Assembly: GCF_035984415.1 (NCBI RefSeq)
Contig: NZ_CP130720.1
Location: 1,736,001 to 1,800,000, forward strand
Origin: Streptomyces sp. NBC_01296
GTDB taxonomy: Bacteria; Actinomycetota; Actinomycetes; Streptomycetales; Streptomycetaceae
Length of the DNA: 64,000 bases
Reading direction: 5' to 3'
Of this stretch, positions 19,982-53,760 are shown one piece after another (position 1 is the first letter of the stretch; each line of letters opens with the position of its first letter). The notes under the pieces are model-generated. The model worked only from the letters and a program-made list of their open reading frames with translations. It searched no databases and had not been told where the DNA came from. The position numbers and the translations under genes are program-made.

Positions 19982-20518
19982 TCAGGACAGCTCGTGGCGC
20001 AGCGGTGTGAGCTGTTCGATGTCGTAGCGAATCCGCAGGTCGCGGATCGCTGCGGGATCCGGGGTGGCGCTCGTGTCGAGCAGCTCGAGGAGCTCCTCGA
20101 AGTACCGCTCGTGATCGGGCGGCGGTGAGGCCTGGAAGAACATCCGGGCCGGTTCGCCGGTGGGGTTCGCGAAGGCGTGCGGACAACCGGGCGGAACCAC
20201 GATGACGGTTCCGGGCGTGGCACGGACGACCTGACGTCCGTCGAGCGCTTCCCAGTGTCTCCAGTCGTCCCCGGAACGCACGCGCGGCTCGAAGGCCATG
20301 ACGTCGAGTTCACCCTCCAGGACGTAGAACAGCTCTTCGCTCCGGGTGTGCAGGTGTGCCCCGACGTCGAAACCGGGCGGTACGACGACCTCGAAGCTCG
20401 AGGCCACCGAGGAGTGCTCCCCGGTGACCTTGAACGTGACCTGCTGGGCGTCGGTGTGCAGCGTGCGGCCGTGACCCGGTGGGACGAGCAGCCCGTCGCG
20501 GGCGATGTGCGCGGTCAT
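19982..20518 (-). CDS. momA: Cupin monooxygenase-like protein of the THN/flaviolin cluster
   Basis: 178 aa. A single cupin barrel is visible with the metal-binding motif GAHLHTRSEELFYVLEGELD (two His, one Glu) and the second motif VPPGCPHAFANP. In other streptomycetes a cupin beside rppA (MomA) oxidises 1,3,6,8-tetrahydroxynaphthalene (THN) to flaviolin; position and size support that role here. The start codon overlaps the P450 stop by 4 bp (ATGA), so translation is probably coupled. It is the last gene of the rppA-P450-cupin operon. Confidence 0.82.
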   Translation of the reverse strand: MTAHIARDGLLVPPGHGRTLHTDAQQVTFKVTGEHSSVASSFEVVVPPGFDVGAHLHTRSEELFYVLEGELDVMAFEPRVRSGDDWRHWEALDGRQVVRATPGTVIVVPPGCPHAFANPTGEPARMFFQASPPPDHERYFEELLELLDTSATPDPAAIRDLRIRYDIEQLTPLRHELS

Positions 20519-21732
20519 GACCAGGTCACGGGCAGACCTTCGGGCCCGCGGATGAGGGCGCCGGGCCGCCAGCCCAGTTCGCTCGCAGGGACGCTGAAGC
20601 GCAGGTCCGCGAAGCGGTCGAGCAGCGCGTCCACGAGGAGTTCGGACTCGAGGCGGGCCAGCATGTTCCCGGGACAGAAGTGGGGTCCGTACCCGAAGGA
20701 GACGTGCGGGTTGGGGCTGCGGTCCAGCTGCAGCTCGTCGGGGTCGGGGAAGACGTCCGGGTCGCGGTTGGCCGCGAGGTAGGAGACGTAGATCGCTTCG
20801 CCCGCCCGGATGAGCTGGCCGGCCACGGTGACGTCCTCGAGGGCGATCCGGGAGAGGCCGACGGCGTTGCGGTGCGGGATGTAGCGCAGCAGCTCGTTGA
20901 TGGCCGAGGGGCGCAGCGCGGGATCGCTCCTCATCCGCTCCATCAGGTCCGGCCGCGTGAGCAGGATGTAGACCATGTTGCCCACGTTGTTGGTGACGGC
21001 CTCGCCCCCGATCTGGATGAGCAGGGCGAGTCCGGTGGCCTCCTCGGCGGTGACCTCGCCGGCCTCGACGGCCTTGACGAGGAGCCCGATGACGCTGTCA
21101 CCGCCGGCCACTTCCCCGTTGCGCATGCGCCCGCCCAGGTAGGCGCACATGTCGTTCTTCGCCTGCTCGCTGCGTTCGGCGCCCTGGGCCGAGGAGAGGA
21201 TCAGGCTGGTCCATTCGTGGACCAGGGGCCGGTCGCTCTCCGGGACGCCCATCAGCTCGCACACGACGGCGAGCGGGAAGGGCGCGAGCAGGCGCTCGGT
21301 CAGGTCCACGGGCGGGCCGTCGCGCAGGATCCCGTCGACGAGGGTGTCGAGCATGTCCCTGGCCCGGCTGCGCAGGGACTCCACCCCGCTGGTGGTGAAG
21401 GCCGCGGCGACGGTGCGCCGCAGCCGGGTGTGGTCGGGCGGGTCCTCGAACCCGACCGCGCCCGGCGCGGGGATGAAGTGGGGGGCCAGCCGGGTGACGT
21501 CGTGTTCCGCGACCAGCTTTCGGCTGAACCGGGGATCGTTGGCCACCATGCGCACGTCGTCGAACCGGCAGACGAGCCAGGCCCACCCGCTTCCGTTCGG
21601 CAGGCGGATCCGGGTGATCGGACCCGCCTGCATCAGTTCGGCGAGGACGGGGTCGAAGTCGACCCCGTCCAGGGCCGGGGTGGGCCAGTGCGTGATGGGT
21701 GGCCTTGCGGTTGCGGGGCCGTCCTTCAGCAT
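20515..21732 (-). CDS. Cytochrome P450, CYP158A-like (flaviolin coupling)
   Basis: 405 aa. The heme-binding loop FGYGPHFCPGNMLARLE contains the cysteine ligand; the ExxR motif is INELLRYIP. The I-helix reads QIGGEAVTNNVGN, where the usual acid-alcohol pair (E/D-T) is replaced. That feature is known for CYP158A2, which couples flaviolin molecules into pigments. The gene follows rppA by 16 bp and overlaps the cupin gene by 4 bp. Role: oxidative dimerisation or polymerisation of the THN product into a protective brown pigment. It is soluble and needs ferredoxin partners encoded elsewhere. Confidence 0.9.
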   Translation of the reverse strand: MLKDGPATARPPITHWPTPALDGVDFDPVLAELMQAGPITRIRLPNGSGWAWLVCRFDDVRMVANDPRFSRKLVAEHDVTRLAPHFIPAPGAVGFEDPPDHTRLRRTVAAAFTTSGVESLRSRARDMLDTLVDGILRDGPPVDLTERLLAPFPLAVVCELMGVPESDRPLVHEWTSLILSSAQGAERSEQAKNDMCAYLGGRMRNGEVAGGDSVIGLLVKAVEAGEVTAEEATGLALLIQIGGEAVTNNVGNMVYILLTRPDLMERMRSDPALRPSAINELLRYIPHRNAVGLSRIALEDVTVAGQLIRAGEAIYVSYLAANRDPDVFPDPDELQLDRSPNPHVSFGYGPHFCPGNMLARLESELLVDALLDRFADLRFSVPASELGWRPGALIRGPEGLPVTWS

Positions 21733-21748
21733 TCTTCGGATTCCTCCC

Positions 21749-22810
21749 TCACCCGGTCCCTCGGTCCGAGGTCCAGCTGCCCAGTGAGATCTCTGCGGTG
21801 ATGCCCGGGCCGAAACCGGCCAGCAGGCCCCGCGCGGCGTCAGCGGTGCCGTTCTCGTCGAAGAGTCGGCGCAGTGCGTCCAGGACGACGGCGCTGGCGA
21901 TGTTGCCGTACTCGGTCAGTGTGGCCCGACTGAAGCGGAATGCCTCGGGTGCCACACCGAGGTACTTGCTCAGGTCATCCAGGATGCGGGGCCCACCGGC
22001 GTGGATGATGTAGAAATCCAGTGCGGCAGCGTCCCACCCATGGGCTTTGGCGAGCTCCTTGAGGGACGGGGCGAGCGGTTCCATGGTCCCGGGCACCCGC
22101 CGGTCGAGCTTGAAGTGGAACCCGGTGGACTTGACGTCGTACATGATCCAGTCCTCTGTCTGGGGGATGATGTACGAGCTGTTGCGGTGCAGTTCCATGC
22201 CGGTGCCGCCCTTGCCGCGGACGACTGCGGCGCCGACGCCGTCGCCGAACAGGCCGTTCGAGAGCAGGTTGCCGACCTCCAGGTCACTGGGCTGGTAGCA
22301 GAGCGAGCAGAACTCGCAGGACACGATCAGCGCGTTCGCCTCGGGGTAGGCGGTGCAGAAGTCGTGGGCCCGGTTGACCGCCGCCCCGCCCGCCGCGCAG
22401 CCCAGCTGGGCGATGGGGAGCTGTTTGGTGTCCGTCCTGAAGCCCATCGCGTTGATCATCCAGGCGGTCAGCGAGGGCATCATGAAGCCCGTGCACGACA
22501 CGTAGATGATCATGTCGATGTCCTTCGCACGCAGCTGCGCGTCCTCCAGCGCCTGCCGCACCACCGCCGGGACCCGCTGCTTGGCCTCGACCTCGTACAC
22601 CGCGTTGCGCGATTCGAAACCGGGGTGCTTGAGGGTCTCCTCGATGGGGCGCACGATGTGCCGCTTCGCGACGCCGGTGTTGCGGATCAGACGCAGCGCC
22701 AGGTCGAGCTGCGGATGGTCCGCGTGCACCGAACGGCACAGATCCAGGGTCTGCTCCATCGTGATCACGTGCTCGGGCACGCACACCGTTGGCCTGCACA
22801 GAGTCGCCAT
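21749..22810 (-). CDS. rppA: Type III polyketide synthase, 1,3,6,8-tetrahydroxynaphthalene synthase
   Basis: 353 aa from the ATG at 22810 (MATLCRPTVCVPEHVITMEQ) with AAGGAGAG upstream. It aligns by eye with RppA across its length. The catalytic triad is present: Cys in QLGCAAGGAAVNRAHDFC, His in FYIIHAGGPRILDDL, Asn in LTEYGNIASAVV. The enzyme condenses five malonyl-CoA units to THN, precursor of flaviolin and melanin-like pigments. It heads the minus-strand operon and is divergent from a second P450 across about 205 bp. It is shorter than the S. coelicolor protein, lacking its C-terminal extension. Confidence 0.96.
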   Translation of the reverse strand: MATLCRPTVCVPEHVITMEQTLDLCRSVHADHPQLDLALRLIRNTGVAKRHIVRPIEETLKHPGFESRNAVYEVEAKQRVPAVVRQALEDAQLRAKDIDMIIYVSCTGFMMPSLTAWMINAMGFRTDTKQLPIAQLGCAAGGAAVNRAHDFCTAYPEANALIVSCEFCSLCYQPSDLEVGNLLSNGLFGDGVGAAVVRGKGGTGMELHRNSSYIIPQTEDWIMYDVKSTGFHFKLDRRVPGTMEPLAPSLKELAKAHGWDAAALDFYIIHAGGPRILDDLSKYLGVAPEAFRFSRATLTEYGNIASAVVLDALRRLFDENGTADAARGLLAGFGPGITAEISLGSWTSDRGTG

Positions 22811-23015
22811 GGGTGGCTCTCCTTTCGTGTCTGACACAGCCTCACGGACCTTTGGCCGATGCGCGCGCGGGACTACGGCGTTGGAGGACATGAGCCAATC
22901 CGGTGACGCTGCGCCGAGGAGGCAGCGGAGCGTGTGACGAGAGGGAAGGGATGGCGGTGCCGATTTCCCGCGGAATCGCGCCTTGGGGGGTGACATCCAC
23001 GCAGGGAGATGAACC
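22811..23015. promoter_or_regulatory. Divergent promoter region of the rppA cluster
   Basis: This 205-bp gap must contain promoters for rppA (leftward) and the second P450 (rightward). It has the rppA Shine-Dalgarno AAGGAGAG near its left end and GGGAG before the P450 start at its right end. No clear operator palindrome was found. Confidence 0.6.
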
Positions 23016-24260
23016 ATGACGTCAGACCCGCACACGGCCCTCGATCCGGAGACGGACCCGGCCTCGGGCGAACCGGTGCACTGCTGGAACCTGGACGACT
23101 TCGAGGCGCTCGACTTCGACCCGTTCCTGCACGACCGCCTGCGGGACAAACGGGCCGCCCGGATCCGGCTGCCGTACGGCCAGGGCAGCGCCTGGCTGAT
23201 GTCCCGCTACGCCGACGTGAAGGCGGCCACCACCGACCCGCGCTTCAGCAGGCAGGAACTGGTCGGCCGTACGATCACCGCCTCCTCCCCGCACGCCATC
23301 GCCTCGCAGCAGGCGTCCATGAACTACGCCGACCCGCCGCGCCTCAACGACATGCGCCGCGTGGTCGCACGGGCCTTCACCGGCAAGAGCATGCAGAAGC
23401 TGCGGCCGACCGTGCAGAAGACCGCCGACAGCCTGCTGGACGGCATGGAGCGGCACGGTTCGCCGGCGGACCTGGTCGAGCACCTGCACGGCCCGTTCCC
23501 GCTCGCGGCGGTCGCCGACCTGCTGGGGATGCCGCAGGACATGCGCCGGAACATGACCTCCTGGGCGAACGTGATCATGACGCCCGGTCCGGCTCCCGAC
23601 AAGAGCACCGACGCGCTGAAGACGGTGCGCGAGTGCGTCGTCGCCCTGCTCGCCATGCGGCGGGAGAAGCAGAGCGACGACCTGGCCGGGGTGCTCGCCG
23701 CGGCCGCCGACGCCGGCGAGATCACCGATCCTGAGGCCGTCTCCATCGCCACCGCGATCCTGGTGAGCGGTGCGCACGCGGTGCGCAACAACAGCGCGAA
23801 CATGATCTTCGCACTCCTCACCCATCCGGAGCACCTCGAACGGCTGCGCAGGGATCCGGAGCTGATCCCCCAGGCCGTCGACGAGCTGCTGCGCTTCATC
23901 CCGCACCGCAGCGGGGTGGGCCTGCCGCGGATCGCCACGCGGGACGTGGACATCGCCGGCGTCACGGTCAAGGCCGGCGAGACGGTGTACTCCTCGTACC
24001 TGGCGGCCAACCGCGACCCGGAGGTCTTCCCGAACCCCGACACGCTGGACTTCGACCGCGGGCCCATCGCCCACATGGCCTTCGGGAACGGTCCCCACCA
24101 CTGCGTCGGCTCGATGCTGGCCCGGATGGAGTCCGAGATCATCGTCACCACGCTGCTCGACCGCTACCCGCGCCTGGCCCTGGCCGTGCCGCGCGAGCAG
24201 ATCGAGTGGCAGGCCGGGGCGCTGATCCGCGGGCCCAAGACCCTGCCGGTGTCCTGGTGA
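23016..24260 (+). CDS. Second cytochrome P450, paralogue of the cluster P450
   Basis: 414 aa. Heme loop FGNGPHHCVGSMLARME and ExxR motif in DELLRFIPHR. The I-helix VSGAHAVRNNSAN has no acid-alcohol pair, as in its neighbour. Shared stretches with the other P450 (LAANRDPxVFP, GALIRGPxxLPVxW) show the two are paralogues. S. coelicolor likewise has CYP158A1 and A2, though not side by side. It is divergent from rppA. A likely role is a different regiochemistry of flaviolin coupling, or oxidation of a pigment intermediate; this is inferred. Confidence 0.88.
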   Translation: MTSDPHTALDPETDPASGEPVHCWNLDDFEALDFDPFLHDRLRDKRAARIRLPYGQGSAWLMSRYADVKAATTDPRFSRQELVGRTITASSPHAIASQQASMNYADPPRLNDMRRVVARAFTGKSMQKLRPTVQKTADSLLDGMERHGSPADLVEHLHGPFPLAAVADLLGMPQDMRRNMTSWANVIMTPGPAPDKSTDALKTVRECVVALLAMRREKQSDDLAGVLAAAADAGEITDPEAVSIATAILVSGAHAVRNNSANMIFALLTHPEHLERLRRDPELIPQAVDELLRFIPHRSGVGLPRIATRDVDIAGVTVKAGETVYSSYLAANRDPEVFPNPDTLDFDRGPIAHMAFGNGPHHCVGSMLARMESEIIVTTLLDRYPRLALAVPREQIEWQAGALIRGPKTLPVSW

Positions 24261-27368: not shown

Positions 27369-30338
27369 TCATCCGACCTGTCGGCGGACCAGCTCGTGGA
27401 ACAGGCCCGCCGTATCGGCGAGCAGTTCGGCGGGCGGCCCCTGCTGGGCGACCCGACCGTCCGACATCACGATGACCCGATCGGCGTCCATGACGGTGGA
27501 CAGCCGGTGGGCGATCACGATGCGGGTGGCGCGCAGGGCGCGGGTGGACTCGATGACCACGCGCTGGGCCTCGTTGTCCAGCGCGCTGGTGGCCTCGTCC
27601 AGGAAGAGGATGCGCGGTTTGCCGATGAGCGCCTGGGCGATCATCAGCCGCTGGCGCTGGCCGCCCGAGACGGTGCCGCCGCCGTCGGCCAGCACGGTGT
27701 GCATGCCCATGGGCATGGCCTTGATGTCCTCGGCGAGGCCCGCCAGGGCGGCGGCCTCCGCGGCCTCCTCGAGGGAGTACGCGCCGGAGCCGCGGATGCA
27801 GTCGAGGATCGAGCCGGAGAACGGCTGCGCGTTCTGCAGGACGACACCGCACTGGCGGCGTACGGCCGCCTGGTCGAGTGCGGCCAGGTCCTGGCCGTCG
27901 TACAGCACGCTGCCGGAGCCGGGCCGGTCGAAACCGATGAGCAGGCGCAGCAGGGTCGACTTGCCGCAGCCGCTGGCCCCGACGACCGCGACGAACTCGC
28001 CGGGCCGCACCTGGAAGGACACGTCGTCCAGGACGAGCGGGCCGTCGTCGGCGTACCGGTAGGAGAGGTTCTTCACCTCGACGGCGCCGCTGAGCTCGCC
28101 CGGCCGGATACTGGAGCCCCGTACCTCGGGGGTCGCCTCGAGGAGCGGCTTGACCTGCTCGAACATCGGCTGCACGGCGGCGGCCGAGAGGAGGGCGCCG
28201 GTCAGCTGGGTGGCCGAGGACAGCATCATCGTCACGGCGGTGCTGAACGTGAGGAACTCGCCGGCGGACATGCTGCCCCGGGCCGGGCCGGCCAGCAGCA
28301 TGAACATCACGAGCGTGCACAGCGGCAGATAGACCGCGTTGAGCACCGTGACGACGTTCTTGATCCGGCCGATGCGCTGCTGGAGCTCGCGGGTACGGGC
28401 GAACTCCCGCGCCCACGCGGCGTACGCGAAGCTCTCGGCCGCGGCCACGCGCAGCTTGGGCAGCCCCCGCAGGGTCTGGAACGCCTGGTTGCCGAGCTTG
28501 TTGCCGATCGTGATCAGCCGGCGCTGGTAGCGGAGCTGCCACAGCCCCAGGCCCAGGAAGACGACGGCGATGGCGAGCAGCATGGCGACCGCGGCCAGCG
28601 CCAGCGGCACGCTGTAGACGAGCAGCAGCACGAGGTTGATCGTGCCGACGGTGCCCGCCTGCAGCGACACCGAGACGATGCCGGACAGCACGGTGCGGAT
28701 GGAGCTGATGCCCATGGCCGCGCCGGCCAGTTCCCCGGTGGAGCGGCCGGCGAAGAACGTCACCGGCAGCCGGAGCAGCCGGTCCCACACGGCCGGCTGC
28801 AAGGTGGCCTCGATGCGGCCCTCCATGCGCAGGAGGGAGATGTTCTGCAGCAGCATGAAGGCGGCCGAGACCACGCCGGTCGCGATGAGCGCCAGAGCGG
28901 TCTGCACGATGAGGCTCTCCTCGGCGTGCGGGACGTACGCGCCGAGCACCCGGCCGGTGGCCACGGGGACGACCGCGCCGAGGCCGACGGCGCCCAGCCC
29001 GCCCACGACGAGGCTGCGCAGGTCCGCGCCGCTGCCGCGCACGCTGAAGCGCAGCAGGTGCAGCAGGCCGGGCTTCTGGTCGGGCAGCGGGCGGTAGAAC
29101 ATGACGGCGTGCGGCTCGAAGGCGTCCGCGCCGTCCTGGCCTAGGCGTTCGCGCGTGCCGGCGGCGGGGTCGACGGCCTCGTACCGGCCGCGCCGCCACA
29201 GCAGCGCGACGGGGGTCCCGTCGTCCGCGCGCCGGCCGACCAGGGGTCCGCTGTTCTCCCGCCACCAGCGTCCGCCGAGCTGGACGGCGCGGGTGCGGAT
29301 CCGCGAGGCGAGCGCGATGCGTTCGACGGGGTCCGTCCGCTCGGAGGCCGCGGCGCCGCCGCCCGTGGGCTCGGTCAGGGCGATGCCGGCTTCCGCCGCG
29401 GCCAGGCGGCACACGGCGAACGTCGCGTCGTGGCCCGCGTCGCGGCGCGAGCCCCTGCGGGAGCGGCCGATGGAGGCGAGCAGGGTGCGGTCCGCCTGGG
29501 TGCGGGCGGCCTCGCCGGCCTCGATGCCGGCGGCCGTGCGGTCCTCGTGGGCGCGCTCGTCCTGCTCGATCCAGCGGTCCAGGGCGTCCAGCAGCCGGTA
29601 CTGCTGGTCCACCATGCCCTGCCACACGGCCCCGTCCACGAGGAGCGTGCCGGCGGGTGCGGACATCCCGACCGCGGCGTGGTGGGTCTCGTACACGGCG
29701 CCGTACTGCACGCTGCCCGGCGGGATCTGCATCCACAGGATGTCCTCGTCGGCCCCGCCGGTCCCGGCGGTGGCACGGCCTTCCAGCGGCGCCTGGTACA
29801 GCACGCGCAGACCACGGCCGATGCCGCGGGCGAAGGCGTCCTCGAGGGGGCTGGGCGCCGCGTCGGCGAACCCGTTCTGCCAGGGATCGGCGTGCCATCC
29901 CCAGGCTCCGTCCGCGGGGACCCCCTGGGCTCCGTGCTCGGGACGGTACAGCTCGCGCAGCTCGATGCGGCGCAGTACGCAGCCCTGCAGCGGGCGCCCG
30001 GTCAGCGTGTGGGCGGGGCCCTCGGCCGGGCCCAGGAGCAGCGTGCCCGACTCGAGCCGGCCCAGGAAGTGCCAGTGGCCCGCCTGGGCGGCATCGACGG
30101 CGAACAGGTCCAGCTCGCCCTGCACGACGAGCCACAGGACGAGCGGACCTTCCAGCGACAGGCTGCGCAGGCCCGTGCAGTCGACCGGCGTGCCGAGGGC
30201 GCCGAGGGCCGCCACGACCGGATCGGGCGCGATGTGGGCCTGGTGGGGCTCGTAAGTCTGGTGGGCCTGATCGGGCGTGTAAGCCATGTGGGTCTGGTGG
30301 GTCTGGTAGGTCTCGTGGGTCTGGTGGGGGGATGTCAC
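27369..30338 (-). CDS. NHLM-type bacteriocin exporter, permease/ATPase subunit
   Basis: 989 aa from a GTG one base after the upstream gene's stop. Residues 1-40 are His/Gln/Thr repeats. Residues about 45-330 form a cyclic-nucleotide-binding-like N-terminal region, then a six-helix ABC exporter domain (about 410-690) and an ATPase domain (about 745-985). Walker A is VGASGCGKST, the signature is VSGGQRQRL, Walker B is RILFLDEATSAL. This long form without peptidase pairs with the C39 transporter in NHLM systems (TIGR03797-like). Together with the HlyD-like adaptor it should export the small peptide encoded at the head of the operon. Confidence 0.93.
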   Translation of the reverse strand: MTSPHQTHETYQTHQTHMAYTPDQAHQTYEPHQAHIAPDPVVAALGALGTPVDCTGLRSLSLEGPLVLWLVVQGELDLFAVDAAQAGHWHFLGRLESGTLLLGPAEGPAHTLTGRPLQGCVLRRIELRELYRPEHGAQGVPADGAWGWHADPWQNGFADAAPSPLEDAFARGIGRGLRVLYQAPLEGRATAGTGGADEDILWMQIPPGSVQYGAVYETHHAAVGMSAPAGTLLVDGAVWQGMVDQQYRLLDALDRWIEQDERAHEDRTAAGIEAGEAARTQADRTLLASIGRSRRGSRRDAGHDATFAVCRLAAAEAGIALTEPTGGGAAASERTDPVERIALASRIRTRAVQLGGRWWRENSGPLVGRRADDGTPVALLWRRGRYEAVDPAAGTRERLGQDGADAFEPHAVMFYRPLPDQKPGLLHLLRFSVRGSGADLRSLVVGGLGAVGLGAVVPVATGRVLGAYVPHAEESLIVQTALALIATGVVSAAFMLLQNISLLRMEGRIEATLQPAVWDRLLRLPVTFFAGRSTGELAGAAMGISSIRTVLSGIVSVSLQAGTVGTINLVLLLVYSVPLALAAVAMLLAIAVVFLGLGLWQLRYQRRLITIGNKLGNQAFQTLRGLPKLRVAAAESFAYAAWAREFARTRELQQRIGRIKNVVTVLNAVYLPLCTLVMFMLLAGPARGSMSAGEFLTFSTAVTMMLSSATQLTGALLSAAAVQPMFEQVKPLLEATPEVRGSSIRPGELSGAVEVKNLSYRYADDGPLVLDDVSFQVRPGEFVAVVGASGCGKSTLLRLLIGFDRPGSGSVLYDGQDLAALDQAAVRRQCGVVLQNAQPFSGSILDCIRGSGAYSLEEAAEAAALAGLAEDIKAMPMGMHTVLADGGGTVSGGQRQRLMIAQALIGKPRILFLDEATSALDNEAQRVVIESTRALRATRIVIAHRLSTVMDADRVIVMSDGRVAQQGPPAELLADTAGLFHELVRRQVG
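30240..30333. repeat. In-gene repeat coding a His/Gln/Thr N-terminus
   Basis: Imperfect tandem units built on GTGGGTCTGGTGGGTCTGGT (plus strand) encode HQTH/YQTHQTH/HQTYEPHQAH at the start of the permease/ATPase subunit. Expansion or contraction in multiples of three would only lengthen the tail. Confidence 0.8.
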
Positions 30339-30339
30339 G

Positions 30340-32613
30340 TCAGTGCTCCTTCACCAGTCGGGCGTACGCGCCCTGCGCGGCGATCAGATGCTCGTGCCGT
30401 CCGCGTTCCACGACCGTGCCCCGGTCGAGCACGACGATCTCGTCGCTGTCGCGCACGGTGCTCAGCCGGTGGGCGATCACCACGCAGGCGCAGCCTCGGC
30501 GCCGCAGGTTGTCGATGACGATCTGCTCGGTCGCCGCGTCCAGGGCGCTGGTCACCTCGTCCAGGATCATGACGCTGGGACGGCGCACCAGGGCGCGGGC
30601 GATCTCCAGGCGCTGGCGCTGGCCGCCGGAGAAGTTGCGGCCGTCCTGCTCGACGCGGCTGTGGATGCCGCCGGCGCGGCGCCCGACCACGTCGTACACG
30701 GCGGCGTCCTGGAGGGCTGCGATGACGGCCTCGTCCGGGATGGAGGGGTCCCACAGCGCGACGTTGTCGCGGACGGTGCCCTCGAAGAGGAAGACGTCCT
30801 GGTCCACGAAGGAGACGGAGGCGGCCAGCGCGCCGCGCGGGATGTCCTCCAGCCGCATCCCGTCGATGCGGATGGCGCCGGCCCAGGGGGTGTAGAGGCC
30901 GGAAATCAGCCGGGAGACGGTGGATTTGCCGCTGCCGGAGCCGCCGACGAGCGCGACCTGCTGCCCGGGGCCGACCGCGAGCGAGACGTCCTTCAGCAAA
31001 GGCGCGTCCAGCGGGCTGTAGCCGAAGGTGATGCCGTCCAGCTCCACGTGCCCCTTGAGCCGGCGGGTACCGGCGGCGGCCTCACCCCGCGCGTGCCGCA
31101 GGTAGAGCGGGTCGACGGGGAAGTTCTCGACGTCCTTCAGGCGGGCGACGTCGGCGGCGAAGTCCTGGATCCGGCCGGCCACTCCGCCCAGGCGGGTGAT
31201 CGGCGCGGTGAAGCTGGTCACCAGGGCCTGGAAGGCGACGAGCAGGCCGACCGAGAGGTGCCCCTCCACCGCCCGCAGGCCGCCGATCATCAAGATCAGC
31301 GCGCTGTTGAGCGCGGCCAGCGTCGGCGCGACGACGGCCAGCCAGGCGCTGGGGACGCCGAGCCGCTGCTGCACGTCGAGGGTGACGGCGTGCTGGCCGG
31401 CCCAGCGGCGGAAGAAACCGTTCTCCCCGCCGGTCGCCTTCATCGTCTCGATGAGCTGGAGGCCGCTGTACGAGGTGTTGGTGAGCCGGGCGCTCTCGGC
31501 GCGCAGCTTCTGGGTGCCGGTGGCCCGTACCCGCATCACGATCCGCACGGCGGCGATGTTGAGCAGCGCGATGAGCACTCCGACGGCGGTGAGCTGCGGG
31601 TCGTACGTCCACAGCAGCACCGCGTAGAGCACGACCACCACGGCGTCGACGCCCGCGGCGGCCAGGTCCCGGGCGAGGGTCTCGGCGACCGCGTCGTTGG
31701 ACTGGAGGCGCTGGACCAGGTCGGCCGGGTTGCGCTGGGTGAAGAAGGCGACCGGGAGCCGGAGCAGGTGCCGCAGGAAACGGGCGCTGCCGAGCGTCGA
31801 GGAGATGATGCGGCCGCGCAGCAGGTTGGCCTGCTGCAGGGAGGTGAGTACGGCGGTGAGCACCAGGGCCGCCGCCATCGAGGCGAAGAGCACGCCCAGC
31901 AGGGACGTCTGCTCGCCGATGAGGAACATGTCGATGTACGTACGGCTCAGCGCGGGCACCGTCGCACCGACGGCCACCAGCAGGAGGCTGGAGACCACGG
32001 CGGCGAGCATGGTGCCCGACGTGCCGCGCAGACGGGCCGGCAGCGCGCTCATGACGCCCTGCTTGCGGCCGGTGCGGCGGAAGCCCGGGCCGGGCTCGAA
32101 GACGAGCGCGATGCCGGTGAAGCCGGTGTCGAACTCCTCCATGGGGACGAACCGGCGCCCCTTGCCGGGGTCGTTGATGTACACGCCCCGGCGGCCGAGG
32201 CGGCGGCCCATGCCCTCGTAGACGACGTAGTGGTTGAACTCCCAGAAGAGGATGGCCGGCGGGTTCACCCCGGCGAGCGCGGCCAGGTCCATCTGCATGC
32301 CCTTGGCCGTGAGCCCGTAACCGCGGGCGGCCTTGAGGAGGTTGCCGGCGCGGGAGCCGTCCCGGGACACCCCGCAGGCGATGCGCAGCTCCTCCAGGGG
32401 CACGAAGCGGCCGAAGTGGCCGAGCACCATGGCCAGCGCGGCGGCGCCGCACTCCACCGCCTCCATCTGCAGCACGGTGGGCGTGCGTACGGTACGGGGC
32501 GTGCGGCCCTTGGGGACGGCCGGACGGCGGCGCCGGCGCCCGCCGGGCGCGACCCGGGCGGCCGGGGGCCGGGAGCGGGGCCGGTTCGGGGAGGTGTGCT
32601 GCGGCACGGTCAC
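30340..32613 (-). CDS. NHLM-type bacteriocin exporter, C39 peptidase/permease/ATPase
   Basis: 757 aa from a GTG at 32613 that overlaps the adaptor stop by 4 bp; the frame is open further upstream but inside the adaptor gene. A basic, proline-rich leader (about 1-45) precedes a C39 peptidase domain with Cys in VECGAAALAMVLG, His in FNHYVVYEG and Asp in YINDPGKG. Six membrane helices follow (about 200-480), then the ATPase domain: Walker A VGGSGSGKST, signature FSGGQRQRLEIA, Walker B VMILDEVTSAL. It should cut leaders after double glycine while exporting the core peptide. Confidence 0.95.
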   Translation of the reverse strand: MTVPQHTSPNRPRSRPPAARVAPGGRRRRRPAVPKGRTPRTVRTPTVLQMEAVECGAAALAMVLGHFGRFVPLEELRIACGVSRDGSRAGNLLKAARGYGLTAKGMQMDLAALAGVNPPAILFWEFNHYVVYEGMGRRLGRRGVYINDPGKGRRFVPMEEFDTGFTGIALVFEPGPGFRRTGRKQGVMSALPARLRGTSGTMLAAVVSSLLLVAVGATVPALSRTYIDMFLIGEQTSLLGVLFASMAAALVLTAVLTSLQQANLLRGRIISSTLGSARFLRHLLRLPVAFFTQRNPADLVQRLQSNDAVAETLARDLAAAGVDAVVVVLYAVLLWTYDPQLTAVGVLIALLNIAAVRIVMRVRATGTQKLRAESARLTNTSYSGLQLIETMKATGGENGFFRRWAGQHAVTLDVQQRLGVPSAWLAVVAPTLAALNSALILMIGGLRAVEGHLSVGLLVAFQALVTSFTAPITRLGGVAGRIQDFAADVARLKDVENFPVDPLYLRHARGEAAAGTRRLKGHVELDGITFGYSPLDAPLLKDVSLAVGPGQQVALVGGSGSGKSTVSRLISGLYTPWAGAIRIDGMRLEDIPRGALAASVSFVDQDVFLFEGTVRDNVALWDPSIPDEAVIAALQDAAVYDVVGRRAGGIHSRVEQDGRNFSGGQRQRLEIARALVRRPSVMILDEVTSALDAATEQIVIDNLRRRGCACVVIAHRLSTVRDSDEIVVLDRGTVVERGRHEHLIAAQGAYARLVKEH

Positions 32614-33416
32614 GGGAGCAGCCAATCGACGGGGCGCTGTGCGGCGAGGTGGACGGCTCCGGTGACCGGTGTCGTGGAGTCGACGGGGTACGGGGGCCCG
32701 CCCGCGGAGGACCACCGGTAGCCGGAGGTGGTCGCGGAGGAGCGTTCGAGCTGCACGAGCACGGCGACGGGGTCGCCCTGGCGGGCGAACTGGGCGGCGA
32801 GGCGGGAGTCGCCGAGGAAGCCGCTGAGCTGCGCCTGCGTCTGGGGCGCGCGGCCGACTTCCTTGACGCGCCCGCGCAGCACGCCGAACTGCTGCTGGGG
32901 GGCGGACTGGACGGTCAGGTCGACCGGGGCGCCCACGCGGATCTCCGCGCCGCTGCCGCCGGACACGTAGAGCACGGCCACCAGCGGGTCGTCCGTGTTC
33001 TTCACGCGTTCCACGGTCGCCACGTCCGCGCCCGTCGTGACGACGGAGCCCGTCTTGGCGACCAGGGTCGTCACCCGCCCTCCGGCCACCACGCGTACGG
33101 TCCGCTCACCCTGGTCCGTGGCGAGCTGGAGCAGCGGCGCGCCGGGGGACAGCAGTTGGCCCTCTTCGGCAAGCACGGCGGTGACCTGTCCGGCGAAGGG
33201 GCTCTGCAGCAGATAACTGCCCTCGGCATGCGTGAGGATGCCGGGTGCGCTCAGCTTGGAGGAGACGGATCCGGTGAATGCCCAGAAAGCCGCGGCAGCC
33301 ATGACGACGACGGTGACGGCGAGAACGAGTCGGCCCTGCGGGCGTGCGAAACGTACGGGCAGATCGAGCTCTTCCGGCGATTGCAGCTTGGAGAGCGCCT
33401 TTTGACGGAACTGCAC
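32610..33416 (-). CDS. HlyD-like membrane fusion protein of the NHLM system
   Basis: 268 aa. One membrane helix lies at about 28-50 (LVLAVTVVVMAAAAFWAFTG). A lipoyl/biotinyl-like hairpin follows (GSYLLQSPFAGQVTAVLAEE GQ ... LLSPGAPLL), then a beta-barrel segment (VGAPVDLTVQSAPQQQFG). It is shorter than classical HlyD and lacks the long coiled coil, fitting the TIGR03794-like adaptor of Gram-positive NHLM systems. It links the peptide exporters across the membrane-wall space. It lies 100 bp downstream of the precursor gene, behind a hairpin, and overlaps the peptidase transporter start. Confidence 0.9.
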   Translation of the reverse strand: MQFRQKALSKLQSPEELDLPVRFARPQGRLVLAVTVVVMAAAAFWAFTGSVSSKLSAPGILTHAEGSYLLQSPFAGQVTAVLAEEGQLLSPGAPLLQLATDQGERTVRVVAGGRVTTLVAKTGSVVTTGADVATVERVKNTDDPLVAVLYVSGGSGAEIRVGAPVDLTVQSAPQQQFGVLRGRVKEVGRAPQTQAQLSGFLGDSRLAAQFARQGDPVAVLVQLERSSATTSGYRWSSAGGPPYPVDSTTPVTGAVHLAAQRPVDWLLP

Positions 33417-33459: not shown

Positions 33460-33495
33460 CGTGAACCCCGGAACGAAGACGTCCCGGGGTTCACG
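33460..33495 (-). terminator. Hairpin between precursor peptide and export genes, likely attenuator
   Basis: A perfect 12-bp stem (CGTGAACCCCGG with its complement) and a 12-nt loop lies 21 bp after the precursor stop and 43 bp before the adaptor start. Partial termination here would give more precursor mRNA than transporter mRNA, as in many bacteriocin operons. Confidence 0.8.
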
Positions 33496-33516
33496 CGCGC
33501 TGCCGGCCGGCTCGGC

Positions 33517-33735
33517 TCAGAGGCCGGCGACACCGGCGCGGACGCCGACGATGCCCTCGACCTGGCCGGGCAGGGCCAGCGCACCGTGGACCGTGTCCAG
33601 CGAGGTCACGGTGTTCACGACGTGGAAGACGTCGCCGGTGACGGCGCCGAGGAGGCCACCGGAAATGCTGACACCGCCGGAAACCGCGTCCAGTTCGTCG
33701 TCGGCGATCTCACGGGTCTCGATGTCGTTACGCAT
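33517..33735 (-). CDS. Double-glycine-leader precursor peptide, cysteine-free core
   Basis: 72 aa. Leader residues 1-21 (MRNDIETREIADDELDAVSG G) carry the ELxxVxGG motif recognised by C39 peptidases. The predicted core is 51 residues, rich in Gly, Val, Leu and Ala, with one His, one Arg, no Cys, and several Thr/Ser; another GG follows five residues later. With no Cys it cannot form lanthionines or disulfides. It is the first gene of the operon with its cognate exporter, so export is almost certain. The role could be an antimicrobial, a surface-active or a signalling peptide; I do not recognise the core. Confidence 0.88.
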   Translation of the reverse strand: MRNDIETREIADDELDAVSGGVSISGGLLGAVTGDVFHVVNTVTSLDTVHGALALPGQVEGIVGVRAGVAGL

Positions 33736-34168
33736 GATGTGCGCACCCTTCAGTTGTCTGAATGTTTCTCAAATGGCGTGGGCGGTCTGCAACAAGGCGG
33801 TCCGACCACTTCCGAACATCACTTCGGTGGGCAGATGTAAGCACGCGAACGGGTCGCCCGGCCAACCGTGTTGACGCTCCCTCTCGCGCCAGGTGACCGT
33901 TCCCCCGGCGGGCTTTCCGATTGATTCGACGGATCGCCACGGGTTCTCCACAAGATCGAGTAACAAAACAAAACACCCCACCACCCCCACACCGCAAACC
34001 CACCCAAACCCTCGCCGCGGACGCAGGCCGCCACCACAGCTCGAGGGAGAGATGTAACGGGAGGTACCCCCTCCACTTTCACCGCGTGAAGATTTCCGGG
34101 AGCGGCATTCCGTGACGGGCCGACCACGATCCGTGCCGATCGGCGCCCTCCCGGCTATGGTCGGCCCC
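33736..34168. promoter_or_regulatory. 433-bp divergent region with G-quadruplex-like tract
   Basis: No credible gene. It must hold the precursor-operon promoter (leftward) and the acylphosphatase promoter (rightward). From 33963 to 34011 the plus strand is nearly pure A and C with C-runs at 33976-79, 33984-88, 33999-34001, 34003-05 and 34009-11. The minus strand, which is the sense strand of the precursor operon, therefore has five G-runs that could fold as a G-quadruplex. Confidence 0.6.
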
Positions 34169-49665: not shown

Positions 49666-50490
49666 TCAGTTGTGACGGGCGAGCTTGACTGCGGAGATGA
49701 GCAGGATCACGGCCAGCGCGGGGATGAGGACCACGTCCGGGAACACGCCCAGCAGCAGCCCGCCCAGGACCGCGCCGGTGATCGAGCCTGCGGCCATGAC
49801 GATGGTGAAGCGGCGGTTCGCGCCCAGGACGTCGAAGCTGCCGTCGCGGCTGTAGCGGGCGAACGCCACCAGCATCGTGGGCAGGGACACCAGCAGGGAG
49901 AGGCTGCCGGCGGTCTTGATGTCCTCCCCGAACAGCAGCACGATCGTCGGGATCAGCAGCTCGCCGCCGGCCACGCCCATGATCGCCGCGACGACACCGA
50001 TGCCGAACCCGGCGACGACACCGGCAGGCACCTGCGCCCACAGCGGCAGGTCGAGCGTGCTCAGGGCGGTGGTGTGCGTGATCACCAGGGCGACCGCCAT
50101 GAGCACCATCAGAACAGCCAGCACCTTGTAGAGGGTCGAGGAACGCATCCGCACTGCCCAGGATGCTCCGGCCCAGGCACCCAGCAGGCTTCCGGCCAGC
50201 AGGTTGACCGCGACGGGCCAGCGTGCGGCCACCTCGGCGGCCGGGACCGCCGCCAGACGGGCAGGCAGTGCGACCAGGACCACGACCAGGCTCATCGCCT
50301 TGTTCAGGATGACGGCCGAGAGCGCGGCGAATCCGAAGAGGCTGATCAGGAGCGGCAGGCGGAACTCCGCGCCGCCCAGCCCGATCATTCCGCCCAGCAC
50401 GCCGATGGCCGCTCCCGCACCGAACACCACCGGTGCCGTGGGCGTCGCGCGGAGGGGGCTGAGGTTCTGGTCAGTGCGCATGATGGGCAT
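49666..50490 (-). CDS. TauE/SafE-family (TSUP) exporter
   Basis: 274 aa with about eight hydrophobic segments. The repeated family motif is seen twice: IGVLGGMIGLGGAEFRLPLL and IGVVAAIMGVAGGELLIPTI. TSUP proteins export small anions such as sulfite or sulfoacetate; in metal islands they are common but the substrate is usually unknown. The gene lies 160 bp downstream of arsO and may be read from the arsO-aquaporin promoter. Confidence 0.9.
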   Translation of the reverse strand: MPIMRTDQNLSPLRATPTAPVVFGAGAAIGVLGGMIGLGGAEFRLPLLISLFGFAALSAVILNKAMSLVVVLVALPARLAAVPAAEVAARWPVAVNLLAGSLLGAWAGASWAVRMRSSTLYKVLAVLMVLMAVALVITHTTALSTLDLPLWAQVPAGVVAGFGIGVVAAIMGVAGGELLIPTIVLLFGEDIKTAGSLSLLVSLPTMLVAFARYSRDGSFDVLGANRRFTIVMAAGSITGAVLGGLLLGVFPDVVLIPALAVILLISAVKLARHN

Positions 50491-50650
50491 CTTTGCTGGT
50501 CACGGGCCCGCCTGCTACGGCCCGGCCCGACCTTCAGGGAAAGCCACCGGATACGGGCCCAGGACTTGTCAGGACCTCCGAGCACCGGATTCGACCCGGC
50601 CCCTCGCCTCTGCCCAGCAGGCCTGGTGCTGCCGAAACTCCGTCTGAGGG

Positions 50651-51709
50651 TCAGGCTTGCAGAATCTCCGAGATGTCCCGGGCTGCGTCGCGGGCAGTGC
50701 GGCCGACGCCGATGAGGGTGGCGGAGGCGGGGCCGGTCCAGTCGCCGTAGCCGAGCAGGTGCAGGCGGGGTTCGTCGACGGCCCGGGTGCCGACGGTCGC
50801 GATGTGGCCCCGAGTGCCGCGCAGGCGCAGTGAGGCGAAGTGGGCGAGGGCGGGGCGGAAGCCGGTGCACCAGATGACCGCGTCCGCTTCAGCGACGGCG
50901 CCGTCGGCCCACTCGGCTCCGATGGTGGTGAGCCGGGTGAACATCGGCTTCGCATGAAGGAGTCCGGCGTCGCGGGCGGCGCGTACGGGCGGCACGGCGA
51001 CGATGTCGCCGAGGGAGGCCACGCCACCGGTGTCGGTGAGTCCTACGTCCAGAGCACGACGGCGAGCGGTTGCGGCGTCGAAGAGGGCCCGGCCGTCGAT
51101 GTCGTCGGCCAGATAGCGGGGCGGACGCAGGGTGACCCAGGTCAGGTCGGCCACAGAGGCGAGGTCGGCGGCGATCTGGGCACCGGAGTTGCCGCCGCCG
51201 ACCACGATCACCCTCTGGCCAGCAAACTCGGCCGGGCTCTTGTACTGCACCGTGTGGACCTGGCGGCCGGAGAACTCCCGCCGACCGGGGACAGCGGGGA
51301 TGAACGGGCGGGTCCAGGTGCCGGTCGCGGTGACGACCGCGCGGGCCCGCCAGTCGCCCGAGTCGCTCTCCACCCGCAGACGAGCGCCTTCGCGGTGGAC
51401 AGCGTCGACCCATACGCCGCGCTGGACCGGCAGCTCGTACCGCTTCTCGTAGTCGGCGAGGTACTCCACGACATGCTGCGCGTCCGGGTACGTCTGGCCG
51501 GGCTGGGCGGGCATCAGCCGCCCGGGCAGCGAGGAGTACTGCGCCGGAGAGAACAGATGGAGGGAGTCCCAGGTGTGCTGCCATGCCCCGCCGGGTGCGG
51601 CCTGGGCGTCGAGGATGACGTGCTCGACGCCCAGGCGGCGCAGGTGGTAGCCGGCGGCAAGCCCTGCTTGGCCGCCGCCGATCACCACCACGGCCGTGCG
51701 CTCCGTCAT
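50651..51709 (-). CDS. arsO: ArsO-family flavin-dependent monooxygenase
   Basis: 352 aa. FAD motif VVVIGGGQAGLAAGYHLRRL at the start; NADPH motif VIVVGGGNSGAQIAADLASV at about 165-185; FMO-type segment HTVQYKSPAEFAGQ and ATG box ALVT-like AVVTATGTWTRPFIPAV. Size and motifs fit ArsO, the flavoprotein repeatedly found beside arsR and arsenite transport genes. It would oxidise an arsenical or support redox handling of arsenite; the exact reaction is not settled. Its ATG overlaps the aquaporin stop by 4 bp, so it is translationally coupled. Confidence 0.85.
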   Translation of the reverse strand: MTERTAVVVIGGGQAGLAAGYHLRRLGVEHVILDAQAAPGGAWQHTWDSLHLFSPAQYSSLPGRLMPAQPGQTYPDAQHVVEYLADYEKRYELPVQRGVWVDAVHREGARLRVESDSGDWRARAVVTATGTWTRPFIPAVPGRREFSGRQVHTVQYKSPAEFAGQRVIVVGGGNSGAQIAADLASVADLTWVTLRPPRYLADDIDGRALFDAATARRRALDVGLTDTGGVASLGDIVAVPPVRAARDAGLLHAKPMFTRLTTIGAEWADGAVAEADAVIWCTGFRPALAHFASLRLRGTRGHIATVGTRAVDEPRLHLLGYGDWTGPASATLIGVGRTARDAARDISEILQA

Positions 51710-52497
51710 GCCGCGGGCTGCTCCGTGTCGTTCTTGCCGCGCATGAAGATGACCGCCACCAGAGCCAGGCCCACCACCGCGCCGACCAGCTGCATGCCGA
51801 CGAACGCCGGGACCGAGCCGGGGGCGATGCCCGCGAACGTGTCGGTAAAGGCGCGGCCGATGGTCACCGCCGGGTTGGCGAAGGAGGTGGAGGAGGTGAA
51901 CCAGTACGCGGCACCGATGTACGAGGCGACCGCGACGGGCGCGAAGCGGAGCCGGTCGGTGCGGGCCAGGCCGAAGATCAGCAGGATCAGGCCGGCGGTC
52001 GCAACGAGCTCACCGAGAAGGAGGTTTCCGGCGGAGCGGTCGTGCGTGGACCACTTGACCAGCGGCTCGCCGAACATCGCGTCCGCCAGGATCGCGCCCG
52101 CGATCGCACCGACGATCTGCGAAGGCACGTACACGGCCAGCTCGCGGGCGGTGACTCCGGCGCCACCGCGGCGGGCGGTCCACCACTCGGCCAGCGTGAC
52201 GGCCGGGTTGAAGTGTGCGCCGGAGACCGGCCCGAGCAGGGCGATCAGGACGCCGAGGCCGAAGACCGTGGCCGTGGAGTTGGCCAGCAGCTGGAGAGCC
52301 ACGTCCTGCGTGAGCTTCGTGGCCTGGATGCCGGAGCCGACGACGATCGCGACCAGCGCGGCAGAGCCCACCAGCTCGGCGGCGGCGCGGGCGATCAGCG
52401 GAGTGCGGGGCGGGGTCGCGCCGGGTGCGGGCTGGGGCTCGTCGGCGGCTATGTCGCTCTCCGCTGCGGGGGCGGCGACGGGCTCGGTGGCGGTCAA
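51706..52497 (-). CDS. Aquaporin of the arsenic operon (AqpS-like)
   Basis: 263 aa from a proposed TTG at 52497, supported by GAGGAG eight bases upstream; the frame runs back 87 codons but no better start exists and that part overlaps arsR. Both NPA motifs are present: SGAHFNPAVTLAEWW and TSFANPAVTIGRAF. Six membrane helices are clear. In Sinorhizobium meliloti the aquaglyceroporin AqpS in an arsR-aqpS-arsC operon lets arsenite made by ArsC flow out. The arrangement here suggests the same, replacing an Acr3 or ArsB pump. Confidence 0.88.
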   Translation of the reverse strand: MTATEPVAAPAAESDIAADEPQPAPGATPPRTPLIARAAAELVGSAALVAIVVGSGIQATKLTQDVALQLLANSTATVFGLGVLIALLGPVSGAHFNPAVTLAEWWTARRGGAGVTARELAVYVPSQIVGAIAGAILADAMFGEPLVKWSTHDRSAGNLLLGELVATAGLILLIFGLARTDRLRFAPVAVASYIGAAYWFTSSTSFANPAVTIGRAFTDTFAGIAPGSVPAFVGMQLVGAVVGLALVAVIFMRGKNDTEQPAA

Positions 52498-52532
52498 GAC
52501 GGGTTCTCCTCGGGCAGGTGAGGCAGAGCGGG

Positions 52533-52847
52533 CTATGGGCAGGACCGCTTGAGGTTCGCTTCGGCGGTGGCACGCGCGGTCGTGGCGAGGTCGGCGAACT
52601 GACCGGCGAGGGCTTCGATGACTTCCGGGCGCAGCCGGTAGTAGATGTACCTCCCGCATGGCTCCGTATCCACGACCCCGGCCTCGCGCAGCACCTTCAG
52701 GTGGTTGGAGAGGTTCGTCTGCTTGGCACCCGTCTCTTCCACAAGGTGGGTGGTGCACAGCGTCTCGCGCGCGAGCAGGGTCACGATCTGGAGCCTGAGC
52801 GGGTCGGCCAGAACCCGGATCAGATCAGTGTCGACTGACGTCATCAT
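52533..52847 (-). CDS. arsR: ArsR/SmtB-family arsenic regulator, second copy
   Basis: 104 aa. The DNA-binding part is TGAKQTNLSNHLKVLREAGV. Candidate As(III) ligands are Cys in RETLCTTHLVEE, Cys in DTEPCGRYIYYRL and the C-terminal KRSCP. It differs clearly from the first ArsR, so the two blocks may respond to different inducers. The gene leads the minus-strand arsR-aquaporin-arsO operon and is divergent from arsC. Confidence 0.93.
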   Translation of the reverse strand: MMTSVDTDLIRVLADPLRLQIVTLLARETLCTTHLVEETGAKQTNLSNHLKVLREAGVVDTEPCGRYIYYRLRPEVIEALAGQFADLATTARATAEANLKRSCP

Positions 52848-52848
52848 G

Positions 52849-52870
52849 GGCTGATACTGTCACATCAGCC
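52849..52870. promoter_or_regulatory. ArsR operator between second arsR and arsC
   Basis: GGCTGAT and ATCAGCC form a perfect 7-bp inverted repeat around 8 bases, directly in front of the arsR start. It would control both the arsR operon and the divergent arsC. Confidence 0.75.
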
Positions 52871-52996
52871 GAGGATGACACCAGTCCGAGCTGACCTTAT
52901 TGCCGACGCCTGCCCCATGCCGCTGACCGAACAGGTCGCCCAGGCGCCGCCGACATCGTGATCACGATCGCAGTCGCCTACTCCAAGGAAGAACAG

Positions 52997-53416
52997 ATGT
53001 CCTCCGCTCCCAGCGCCTCTGTCCTGTTCGTCTGCATCCACAACGCGGGCCGCTCCCAGATGGCGGCCGGGTTCCTGCGGCACCTCGCCGGGGACCGCGT
53101 CGAGGTCCGCTCCGCCGGCTCCGTCCCTGGAGACCGGATCAACCCCTCCGCCGTGGCCGCCATGGCGGAGCTGGGCATCGACATCTCCGACCAGAAGCCG
53201 AAGGTCCTCACCCCCGAGGCCGCCCAGGCATCGGACTACATCATCACGATGGGCTGCGGCGACGCCTGCCCGTACTTCCCCGGCAAGACCTACCTCGACT
53301 GGCAGCTCGAGGACCCGGCCGGCCAGGGCGTCGAGGCCGTCCGCCCCATCCGCGACGAGATCAAGGGCCTCATCGAGGGCCTGATCGCCGAGATCGACGC
53401 CAAGCCGAAGGCCTGA
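52997..53416 (+). CDS. arsC: Arsenate reductase, low-molecular-weight phosphatase type
   Basis: 139 aa from the ATG at 52997 with AAGGAAG upstream. The phosphate-loop is VCIHNAGRSQ (CX5R), and the redox cysteines are in TMGCGDACPYFPGK; the closing DWQLEDPAGQ is conserved. It reduces arsenate to arsenite using thioredoxin or mycothiol; neither coupling protein is encoded here. The product would leave through the adjacent aquaporin. A strong terminator follows. Confidence 0.95.
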   Translation: MSSAPSASVLFVCIHNAGRSQMAAGFLRHLAGDRVEVRSAGSVPGDRINPSAVAAMAELGIDISDQKPKVLTPEAAQASDYIITMGCGDACPYFPGKTYLDWQLEDPAGQGVEAVRPIRDEIKGLIEGLIAEIDAKPKA

Positions 53417-53441
53417 CCGGAAGTGCCCGCCTCCGGGTGGG

Positions 53442-53477
53442 GGCCCCGCACCCCAGGACTGATCCGGGTGCGGGGCC
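53442..53477. terminator. Bidirectional terminator between arsC and the HMA gene
   Basis: GGCCCCGCACCC pairs perfectly (12 bp) with GGGTGCGGGGCC across a 12-nt loop, in the gap between converging genes. Confidence 0.88.
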
Positions 53478-53496
53478 TTGTCGCAGCGGCTGCGGC

Positions 53497-53760
53497 CTAC
53501 ACGGCGAGCCGGGCCTTGCAGTCGCCCGCCCCGTCCACCGCGGCGACGAGAGTCGCGCTGTCGACGTGTGCGCCCTCCTCCAGACGGACGATGCTGCGCC
53601 CGGAGCGGGTGTCCGTGGTGGCCGAGCGGACGCCGGGGAGGTCTTCCAGCTCGTCGTCGATGAGGAGGCCGCAGCTGGTGCAGTGCATGCCTTCGATGAG
53701 GAGCTCGACCTGGAAGCCGCCGTCGGCTTCAGTCTTGTTCTTTCGGCTGAAGAGCTTCAT
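53497..53760 (-). CDS. Heavy-metal-associated (HMA) domain protein
   Basis: 87 aa from the ATG at 53760. The metal-binding motif is IEGMHCTSCGLLIDDELEDL (CxxC), followed by the ferredoxin-like fold. Copper or mercury chaperones of the CopZ/MerP type have this layout. Its ATG shares one base with the stop of the broken upstream gene, so it was the last gene of that operon. Confidence 0.9.
   Translation of the reverse strand: MKLFSRKNKTEADGGFQVELLIEGMHCTSCGLLIDDELEDLPGVRSATTDTRSGRSIVRLEEGAHVDSATLVAAVDGAGDCKARLAV

What the first reader, a model, noticed from the sequence alone, without database searches (positions are those of the whole stretch)
33460..33735. NHLM export operon with an orphan, cysteine-free double-glycine peptide
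A 72-aa peptide with an ELxxVxGG leader sits first in an operon with HlyD-like, C39-transporter and second ABC-transporter genes (27369-33416), a complete NHLM export set. The 51-residue core is Gly/Val/Leu-rich with no Cys, and no LanM, radical SAM, YcaO or other modifying gene is visible within several kb on either side. An unmodified or remotely modified secreted peptide with unknown activity is the simplest reading. It could be a new class of small hydrophobic secreted peptide in streptomycetes.
Basis: partly seen in the sequence, partly recalled or inferred. Interest (0 to 1): 0.8.

Follow-up and report, generated by a model that had tools for sequence, protein, structure and literature searches.

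The report
Common Streptomyces exported peptide, function unknown
This is a small, cysteine-free peptide that Streptomyces apparently makes in quantity and secretes through its own dedicated pump; the four-gene set is common in the genus and was already noted in S. coelicolor, but I found no report of what the peptide does.

Summary
A 72-aa double-glycine precursor (33517-33735, minus) heads an operon with HlyD, C39-ABC and second ABC genes that pass the curated NHLM cut-offs. It is not an orphan: the HlyD matched in 146 of 199 genus genomes, and all 121 loci I could read carry one GG peptide upstream of hlyD, none with Cys. No further gene travels with the four; the next commonest neighbour is in 77 of 195 loci. 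So an unmodified peptide is the simplest reading, although a maturase encoded elsewhere is not excluded. A conserved 5' region, a hairpin behind the peptide gene, biased codon use and unlinked extra peptide genes (one with the whole 5' region) suggest a regulated, abundant cargo of one exporter. It is not a new class: gene order, size, lack of Cys and flanking gene match S. coelicolor SCO0753-0756, the most induced gene set of a dispersed-growth mutant (PMC6629963). My best guess is an unmodified peptide acting at the hyphal surface (0.45). Helix periodicity, clear in the main clade, is not significant in the window's own peptide, and the authors explain the dispersed phenotype by other genes first.

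The parts
33517..33735 (-). precursor peptide, 72 aa: 21-residue leader ending in Gly-Gly, 51-residue Cys-free core
   Evidence: translation; homologues in 50 of 199 genus genomes at E<=1e-3 by single-sequence search; one such peptide in 121 of 121 exporter loci read
33461..33494 (-). hairpin between the peptide stop and hlyD; inferred to favour peptide over exporter transcript
   Evidence: inverted repeat; a stem of 9 or more bp in 117 of 121 such gaps against 4 with shuffled letters; no T-run follows in the examples printed
32610..33416 (-). NHLM-type HlyD-like accessory protein
   Evidence: TIGR03794, 160.6 bits, cut-off 156.2
30340..32715 (-). C39 peptidase/permease/ATPase (NHLM ABC1); real start probably nearer 32475
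   Evidence: TIGR03796, 1002 bits, cut-off 853.3; C39 domain like 6mpz
27369..30338 (-). second ABC permease/ATPase without C39 domain (NHLM ABC2)
   Evidence: TIGR03797, 867 bits, cut-off 709.4; no Peptidase_C39 match
33741..33753 (-). ribosome-binding stretch CTGAAGGGTGCGC
   Evidence: position; conserved in the alignment of 65 upstream regions of the window's clade
33833..33866 (-). promoter-like block GTTGGCCGGGCG ... GCGTGCTTACATCT (extended -10-like; reading as a promoter is inference)
   Evidence: conserved in the window's clade; related block in the main clade; only one site in the window's genome at up to 2 mismatches, but the backwards control pattern also matched once there
33944..33964 (-). 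conserved upstream block GTTACTCGATCTTGTGGAGAA, possible operator
   Evidence: position
34085..34097 (-). conserved upstream block GGAAATCTTCACG, counterpart of GAATCTGCACA in the main clade
   Evidence: position

Best explanation
The four genes are a self-contained export cassette. SHOWN by sequence: the order peptide-hlyD-ABC1-ABC2 is fixed, the peptide has a conserved double-glycine leader and a Cys-free core, and no other gene travels with the set. INFERRED from the families: ABC1 cuts behind Gly-Gly and, with HlyD and ABC2, moves the core out. INFERRED from codon bias, conserved 5' region and hairpin: the peptide is made in quantity, in excess of the exporter, under tight control. INFERRED from trans copies with the same leader and, in one case, the same 5' region: one exporter serves several co-regulated peptides in some species. 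GUESS: the released core is unmodified and acts at the hyphal surface (a surface-active or matrix peptide that affects how hyphae cling together), rather than as an antibiotic.
For: Single GG peptide in 121 of 121 exporter loci read, 0 of 121 with Cys, 113 distinct cores, V/G/T/L/A about 76% of residues, no Lys, Trp or Met, net charge 0 to -4 in 120 of 121. Only the four genes recur: peptide and hlyD 191, ABC genes 188 of 195 loci, next neighbour 77. Core distances follow hlyD distances (Mantel r 0.83, 0 of 500 permutations), so the core is inherited with its exporter. Peptide codons are more biased than hlyD codons (GGT .25 vs .08, GTC .71 vs .54, GAC .99 vs .86) and synonymous differences are fewer (leader .163, core .226, hlyD .338; 1518 non-independent pairs). 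Conserved 5' blocks; hairpin in 117 of 121. Unlinked GG peptide in G033 with the whole 5' region. C39 domain like LahT150. In S. [quoted passage not shown] No gene that recurs with the cassette could be an immunity gene. Main-clade cores show helix periodicity (42 of 57).
Against: No experiment on the peptide was found. The authors of PMC6629963 put the dispersed phenotype first to lower matB and also cslA/glxA; link to the peptide is correlation. The window's own core has no significant helix periodicity (p 0.35; its clade 2 of 20). Both AlphaFold models are poor (mean pLDDT 54.6 and 57.8). Core non-synonymous differences (.165) exceed those of hlyD (.122) and leader (.058), which also fits an arms race. 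Some genomes of the genus lack it: 53 of 199 had no HlyD match. SCO0753/0756 also change in other mutants, so expression is not specific to dispersal.
Confidence: 0.45

Rival explanations
1. An unmodified (class II-like) bacteriocin: the core kills related bacteria by acting on membranes.
For: Exporter family is named for bacteriocins; GG leader; small-xxx-small spacing above shuffles (8.4 vs 6.3); cores diverge faster than leaders; literature labels SCO0753 a bacteriocin.
Against: Acidic, Lys-free cores; no immunity gene recurs; carried by most of the genus; core distances follow hlyD closely.
Confidence: 0.2
2. A RiPP whose maturase is encoded elsewhere in the genome and reads the shared leader.
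For: Thr/Ser-rich core and strongly conserved leader; one of 48 members, L070, matches the ATP-grasp target family TIGR04497 weakly (22.4 bits, cut-off 32); unlinked peptides show that parts of the system can be scattered. Some clade-limited neighbours are enzymes: an iron-containing redox enzyme family member in 27 and a methyltransferase in 21 of 195 loci.
Against: No enzyme recurs with the cassette beyond clade-level synteny; no Cys for lanthionine; those enzymes are absent beside the window's cassette.
Confidence: 0.2
3. A secreted signal peptide read by a receptor on the same or neighbouring hyphae.
For: GG-leader export is used for pheromones (recalled); tight control region.
Against: Codon bias suggests bulk production; long, variable, compositionally simple core; no receptor gene recurs.
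Confidence: 0.1

Closest known systems
S. coelicolor SCO0753-SCO0756
   Same: Short hydrophobic Cys-free peptide (77 aa as annotated), then HlyD homologue, then two ABC components; SCO0757 exopolyphosphatase follows, as a Ppx/GppA gene does in 37 of 195 of my loci. Loci such as L155 give 77 aa with the upstream in-frame ATG.
   Different: Not compared letter by letter: the S. coelicolor record was not in a collection I could read. The window has another flank and belongs to a clade with MRNDIETREI-type leaders and other 5' blocks.
NHLM/NHLP systems (Haft, Basu and Mitchell 2010, PMC2887384; passages seen)
   Same: All three transporter families; leader ends in a motif like ELSDEQLDAVAGG.
   Different: No nitrile-hydratase-like leader (21 residues instead of about 87) and no TOMM or lanthionine enzyme. 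The paper notes that some NHLP/N11P occur without such enzymes.
Phenol-soluble modulins of staphylococci (search listing and abstract beginnings only; details recalled)
   Same: Works-like analogy: abundant small peptides with their own ABC exporter, surface-active, acting on aggregation; acidic beta type recalled.
   Different: No leader in PSMs (recalled); helix periodicity not significant in the window's peptide; no activity shown.
SapB and chaplins (recalled; mentioned)
   Same: Hydrophobic secreted peptides of Streptomyces surfaces.
   Different: SapB needs Cys-based rings and chaplins the Sec route; neither holds here.

Membership tests
NHLM export cassette | TIGR03794 + TIGR03796 + TIGR03797 in one operon | tested here: met
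   all three over curated cut-offs
NHLP precursor (TIGR03793) | nitrile-hydratase-like leader | tested here: not met
   not among NCBIfam matches of P0001 at E<=0.1 or the nine families listed for 48 members
Lanthipeptide | Cys in core and a Lan synthetase nearby | tested here: not met
   0 of 121 with Cys; no LanM-like neighbour recurs; none among the window genes scanned
SCO0753-0756 family | peptide-HlyD-ABC-ABC order, Cys-free hydrophobic peptide, exopolyphosphatase next to it in S. coelicolor | tested here: met
   order and make-up met by the window and 120 other loci; exopolyphosphatase flank met in 37 of 195 loci, not in the window
SCO0753-0756 family | direct sequence match to SCO0753 | not testable with these tools
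   record not in the collections offered; orthology is inference
Class II bacteriocin | GG leader of bacteriocin type (TIGR01847) | tested here: inconclusive
   2 of 48 family members match weakly (best E 0.0013), the window's member does not
Class II bacteriocin | immunity gene with the precursor | tested here: not met
   no fifth gene recurs
Class II bacteriocin | kills related bacteria | not testable with these tools
   needs a bench assay
Amphipathic surfactant peptide (PSM-like) | amphipathic helix | tested here: inconclusive
   65 of 112 distinct cores p<0.05 (42 of 57 MNST type, 21 of 35 others, 2 of 20 of the window's clade; window p 0.35); strand periodicity 2 of 112
Amphipathic surfactant peptide (PSM-like) | leaderless | tested here: not met
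   clear double-glycine leader

The most novel reading that the evidence does not exclude
A Streptomycetaceae-wide secretion regulon: one NHLM exporter carries, besides its own peptide, several unlinked peptides with the same leader and the same control region, all unmodified and abundant, forming an undescribed class of hyphal-surface peptides beside SapB and chaplins.
Probability: 0.3. Interest if true: 0.8.

Novelty: new member of a known kind. Interest (0 to 1): 0.5.

Why it matters
This is one of the commonest peptide export sets of the genus (HlyD match in 146 of 199 sampled genomes), yet my ten paper searches turned up no function. If the peptide acts on hyphal aggregation it would give a handle on pellet formation, a practical problem in fermentation; if unmodified and inert as an antibiotic it would warn genome miners against calling every such cassette a bacteriocin.

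Tried and rejected
Rejected: that the peptide is a chance ORF; that it is a nitrile-hydratase-type NHLP; that it is a lanthipeptide (no Cys, no enzyme); that the two nearby GNAT genes belong to it (they do not recur). Curated libraries gave no name: Pfam none for P0001, PHROGs only weak matches (best E 0.16) to one of four peptides. No Rfam family passed its threshold in five cassette loci (the window itself was not searched). Strand-type (amyloid-like) periodicity was tested and not seen (2 of 112 cores). Both structure models were too poor for a fold search, so none was run. Neighbours of eight unlinked SVSGS-type peptides share nothing.

L100 among the 121 has an apparently frame-shifted end and was left out of the periodicity and Mantel tests. 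Three of the 50 first matches (L068, L076, L079) showed no GG peptide by my motif and are probably chance. The motif count (87 of 121, 0.05 in shuffles) used a pattern drawn from the same data. Cut-offs for 48 members are not printed. In the named set L252 has a Cys in its leader, and L206 one in a possible N-terminal extension.

Full report
What is there. The minus strand carries a 72-aa ORF at 33517-33735, 100 nt before an HlyD-like gene (32610-33416), a C39 peptidase/permease/ATPase (to 30340) and a second permease/ATPase (27369-30338). All three exporter proteins pass the curated NHLM cut-offs. The C39 domain aligns over 135 residues with LahT150 (6mpz, E 3.8e-42) with the Cys, His and Asp positions kept. 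The peptide itself has no Pfam match and no NCBIfam match near a cut-off.

It is not an orphan. A single-sequence search found homologues in 50 of 199 genus genomes and the HlyD in 146 of 199, three of them only by 35-44% identical copies. All 121 have exactly one GG-leader peptide, 70-322 nt upstream of hlyD. None of the 121 has a Cys; cores are 42-62 aa, V/G/T/L/A-rich, without Lys, Trp or Met; 120 of 121 have net charge 0 to -4, the exception +2. In a class-wide sample 31 of 40 same-genus genomes matched (G473 weakly) and one of 136 other genera (weakly); in a family-wide sample 93 of 200 genomes and 8 of 17 genera. Named relatives include Streptomyces, Actinacidiphila, Streptantibioticus and Streptacidiphilus. 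That the window is Streptomyces is inferred from these and from shared contigs.

A four-gene set. Over 195 loci (121 plus 74 named ones, overlapping) the peptide and hlyD recur in 191, the ABC genes in 188; the next neighbours are in 77 (SpoIIE-type phosphatase with GAF/PAS), 73 (trypsin-like protease), 42 (MFS) and 37 (Ppx/GppA). These look like synteny of one clade and are absent at the window. Against the plain reading: an iron-containing redox enzyme family member occurs in 27 and a methyltransferase in 21 of 195. Only the 16 largest neighbour groups were printed and ten representatives scanned.

Expression signs. Peptide codons are more biased than those of hlyD and synonymous differences are fewer; I read this as high expression (recalled preference of Streptomyces, not tested against ribosomal genes). 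About 400 nt of 5' region hold conserved blocks, of one type in 64 main-clade loci and a related type in 65 loci of the window's clade. The exact pattern GAATCTGCACA-NN-GAAT occurs 11 times in 61 genomes, 9 of them in front of cassettes, none for the backwards control. A tenth, in G033, lies before an unlinked GG peptide with the whole 5' region kept; the eleventh, in G040, was not followed. In the window's genome the promoter-like block has one site at up to 2 mismatches, and the backwards control also had one match. A hairpin of 9 or more bp separates peptide and hlyD in 117 of 121 loci, against 4 with shuffled letters.

Extra peptides. In the family-wide sample 28 of 93 positive genomes have more than one match, some weak. 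Seven of the ten first-set matches without an adjacent exporter are GG peptides with this leader; six of these seven genomes have the HlyD elsewhere, the seventh (G001) being 79% complete. In the window's genome no second peptide was found at a convincing E-value.

What it may do. By order, size, lack of Cys and the flanking exopolyphosphatase the set matches SCO0753-0756 of S. coelicolor; I recalled that locus and then found it in print. In PMC6629963 (passages, outline with abstract and section 29 seen; [quoted passage not shown] exporter 4.25-4.4; almost silent in the null), and the authors suggest it may change hyphal surfaces and note that four genes are conserved in many Streptomyces. 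They explain dispersal first by matB, cslA and glxA. SCO0753 or SCO0756 also change in other mutants (PMC5733086, PMC5882110, PMC6414726; passages). I saw no deletion of the peptide in the parts read.

Structure. Family cores show helix periodicity (65 of 112 at p<0.05) but the window's does not (p 0.35; its clade 2 of 20); strand periodicity 2 of 112. Averages over 56 thinned cores show the same helix signal, but the sequences are related. Both AlphaFold models are mostly helical and poor (54.6 and 57.8). The amphipathic-surfactant analogy therefore rests on the main clade.

Verdict. A real, widespread, little-studied export set; the window's copy is a new member of a known kind. Export and cleavage are likely; the surface role is a guess at 0.45.

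Noticed in passing
L285 (G033:C13, about 397033): An unlinked GG peptide (MNSAPQVEAVEISDAELDNVSGG...) sits behind a full copy of the cassette's conserved 5' region: likely co-regulated cargo.
   Followed up: partly
G040:C1:1569182: A second exact copy of the 5' element away from the cassette; what follows it was not read.
   Followed up: no
L058, L059, L060, L061, L065, L086, L229, L238: A second peptide family with the same leader and a different core (SVSGS...GPI) stands alone with no shared neighbour.
   Followed up: partly
L172, 6368-13063 (S. cadmiisoli plasmid): A different NHLM lineage (ABC1 58% identical) beside a 137-aa precursor that looks nitrile-hydratase-like by eye and ends in a Cys-containing core.
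   Followed up: no
window 19985-24257: Cupin, P450, type III polyketide synthase and a second, oppositely oriented P450: a likely small pigment-type cluster.
   Followed up: no
window 49669-53760: ArsR-type regulator, MIP channel, low-molecular-weight phosphatase-like protein and a pyridine-nucleotide oxidoreductase, with a TauE-type exporter and an HMA protein nearby: looks like an arsenic-resistance set.
   Followed up: no
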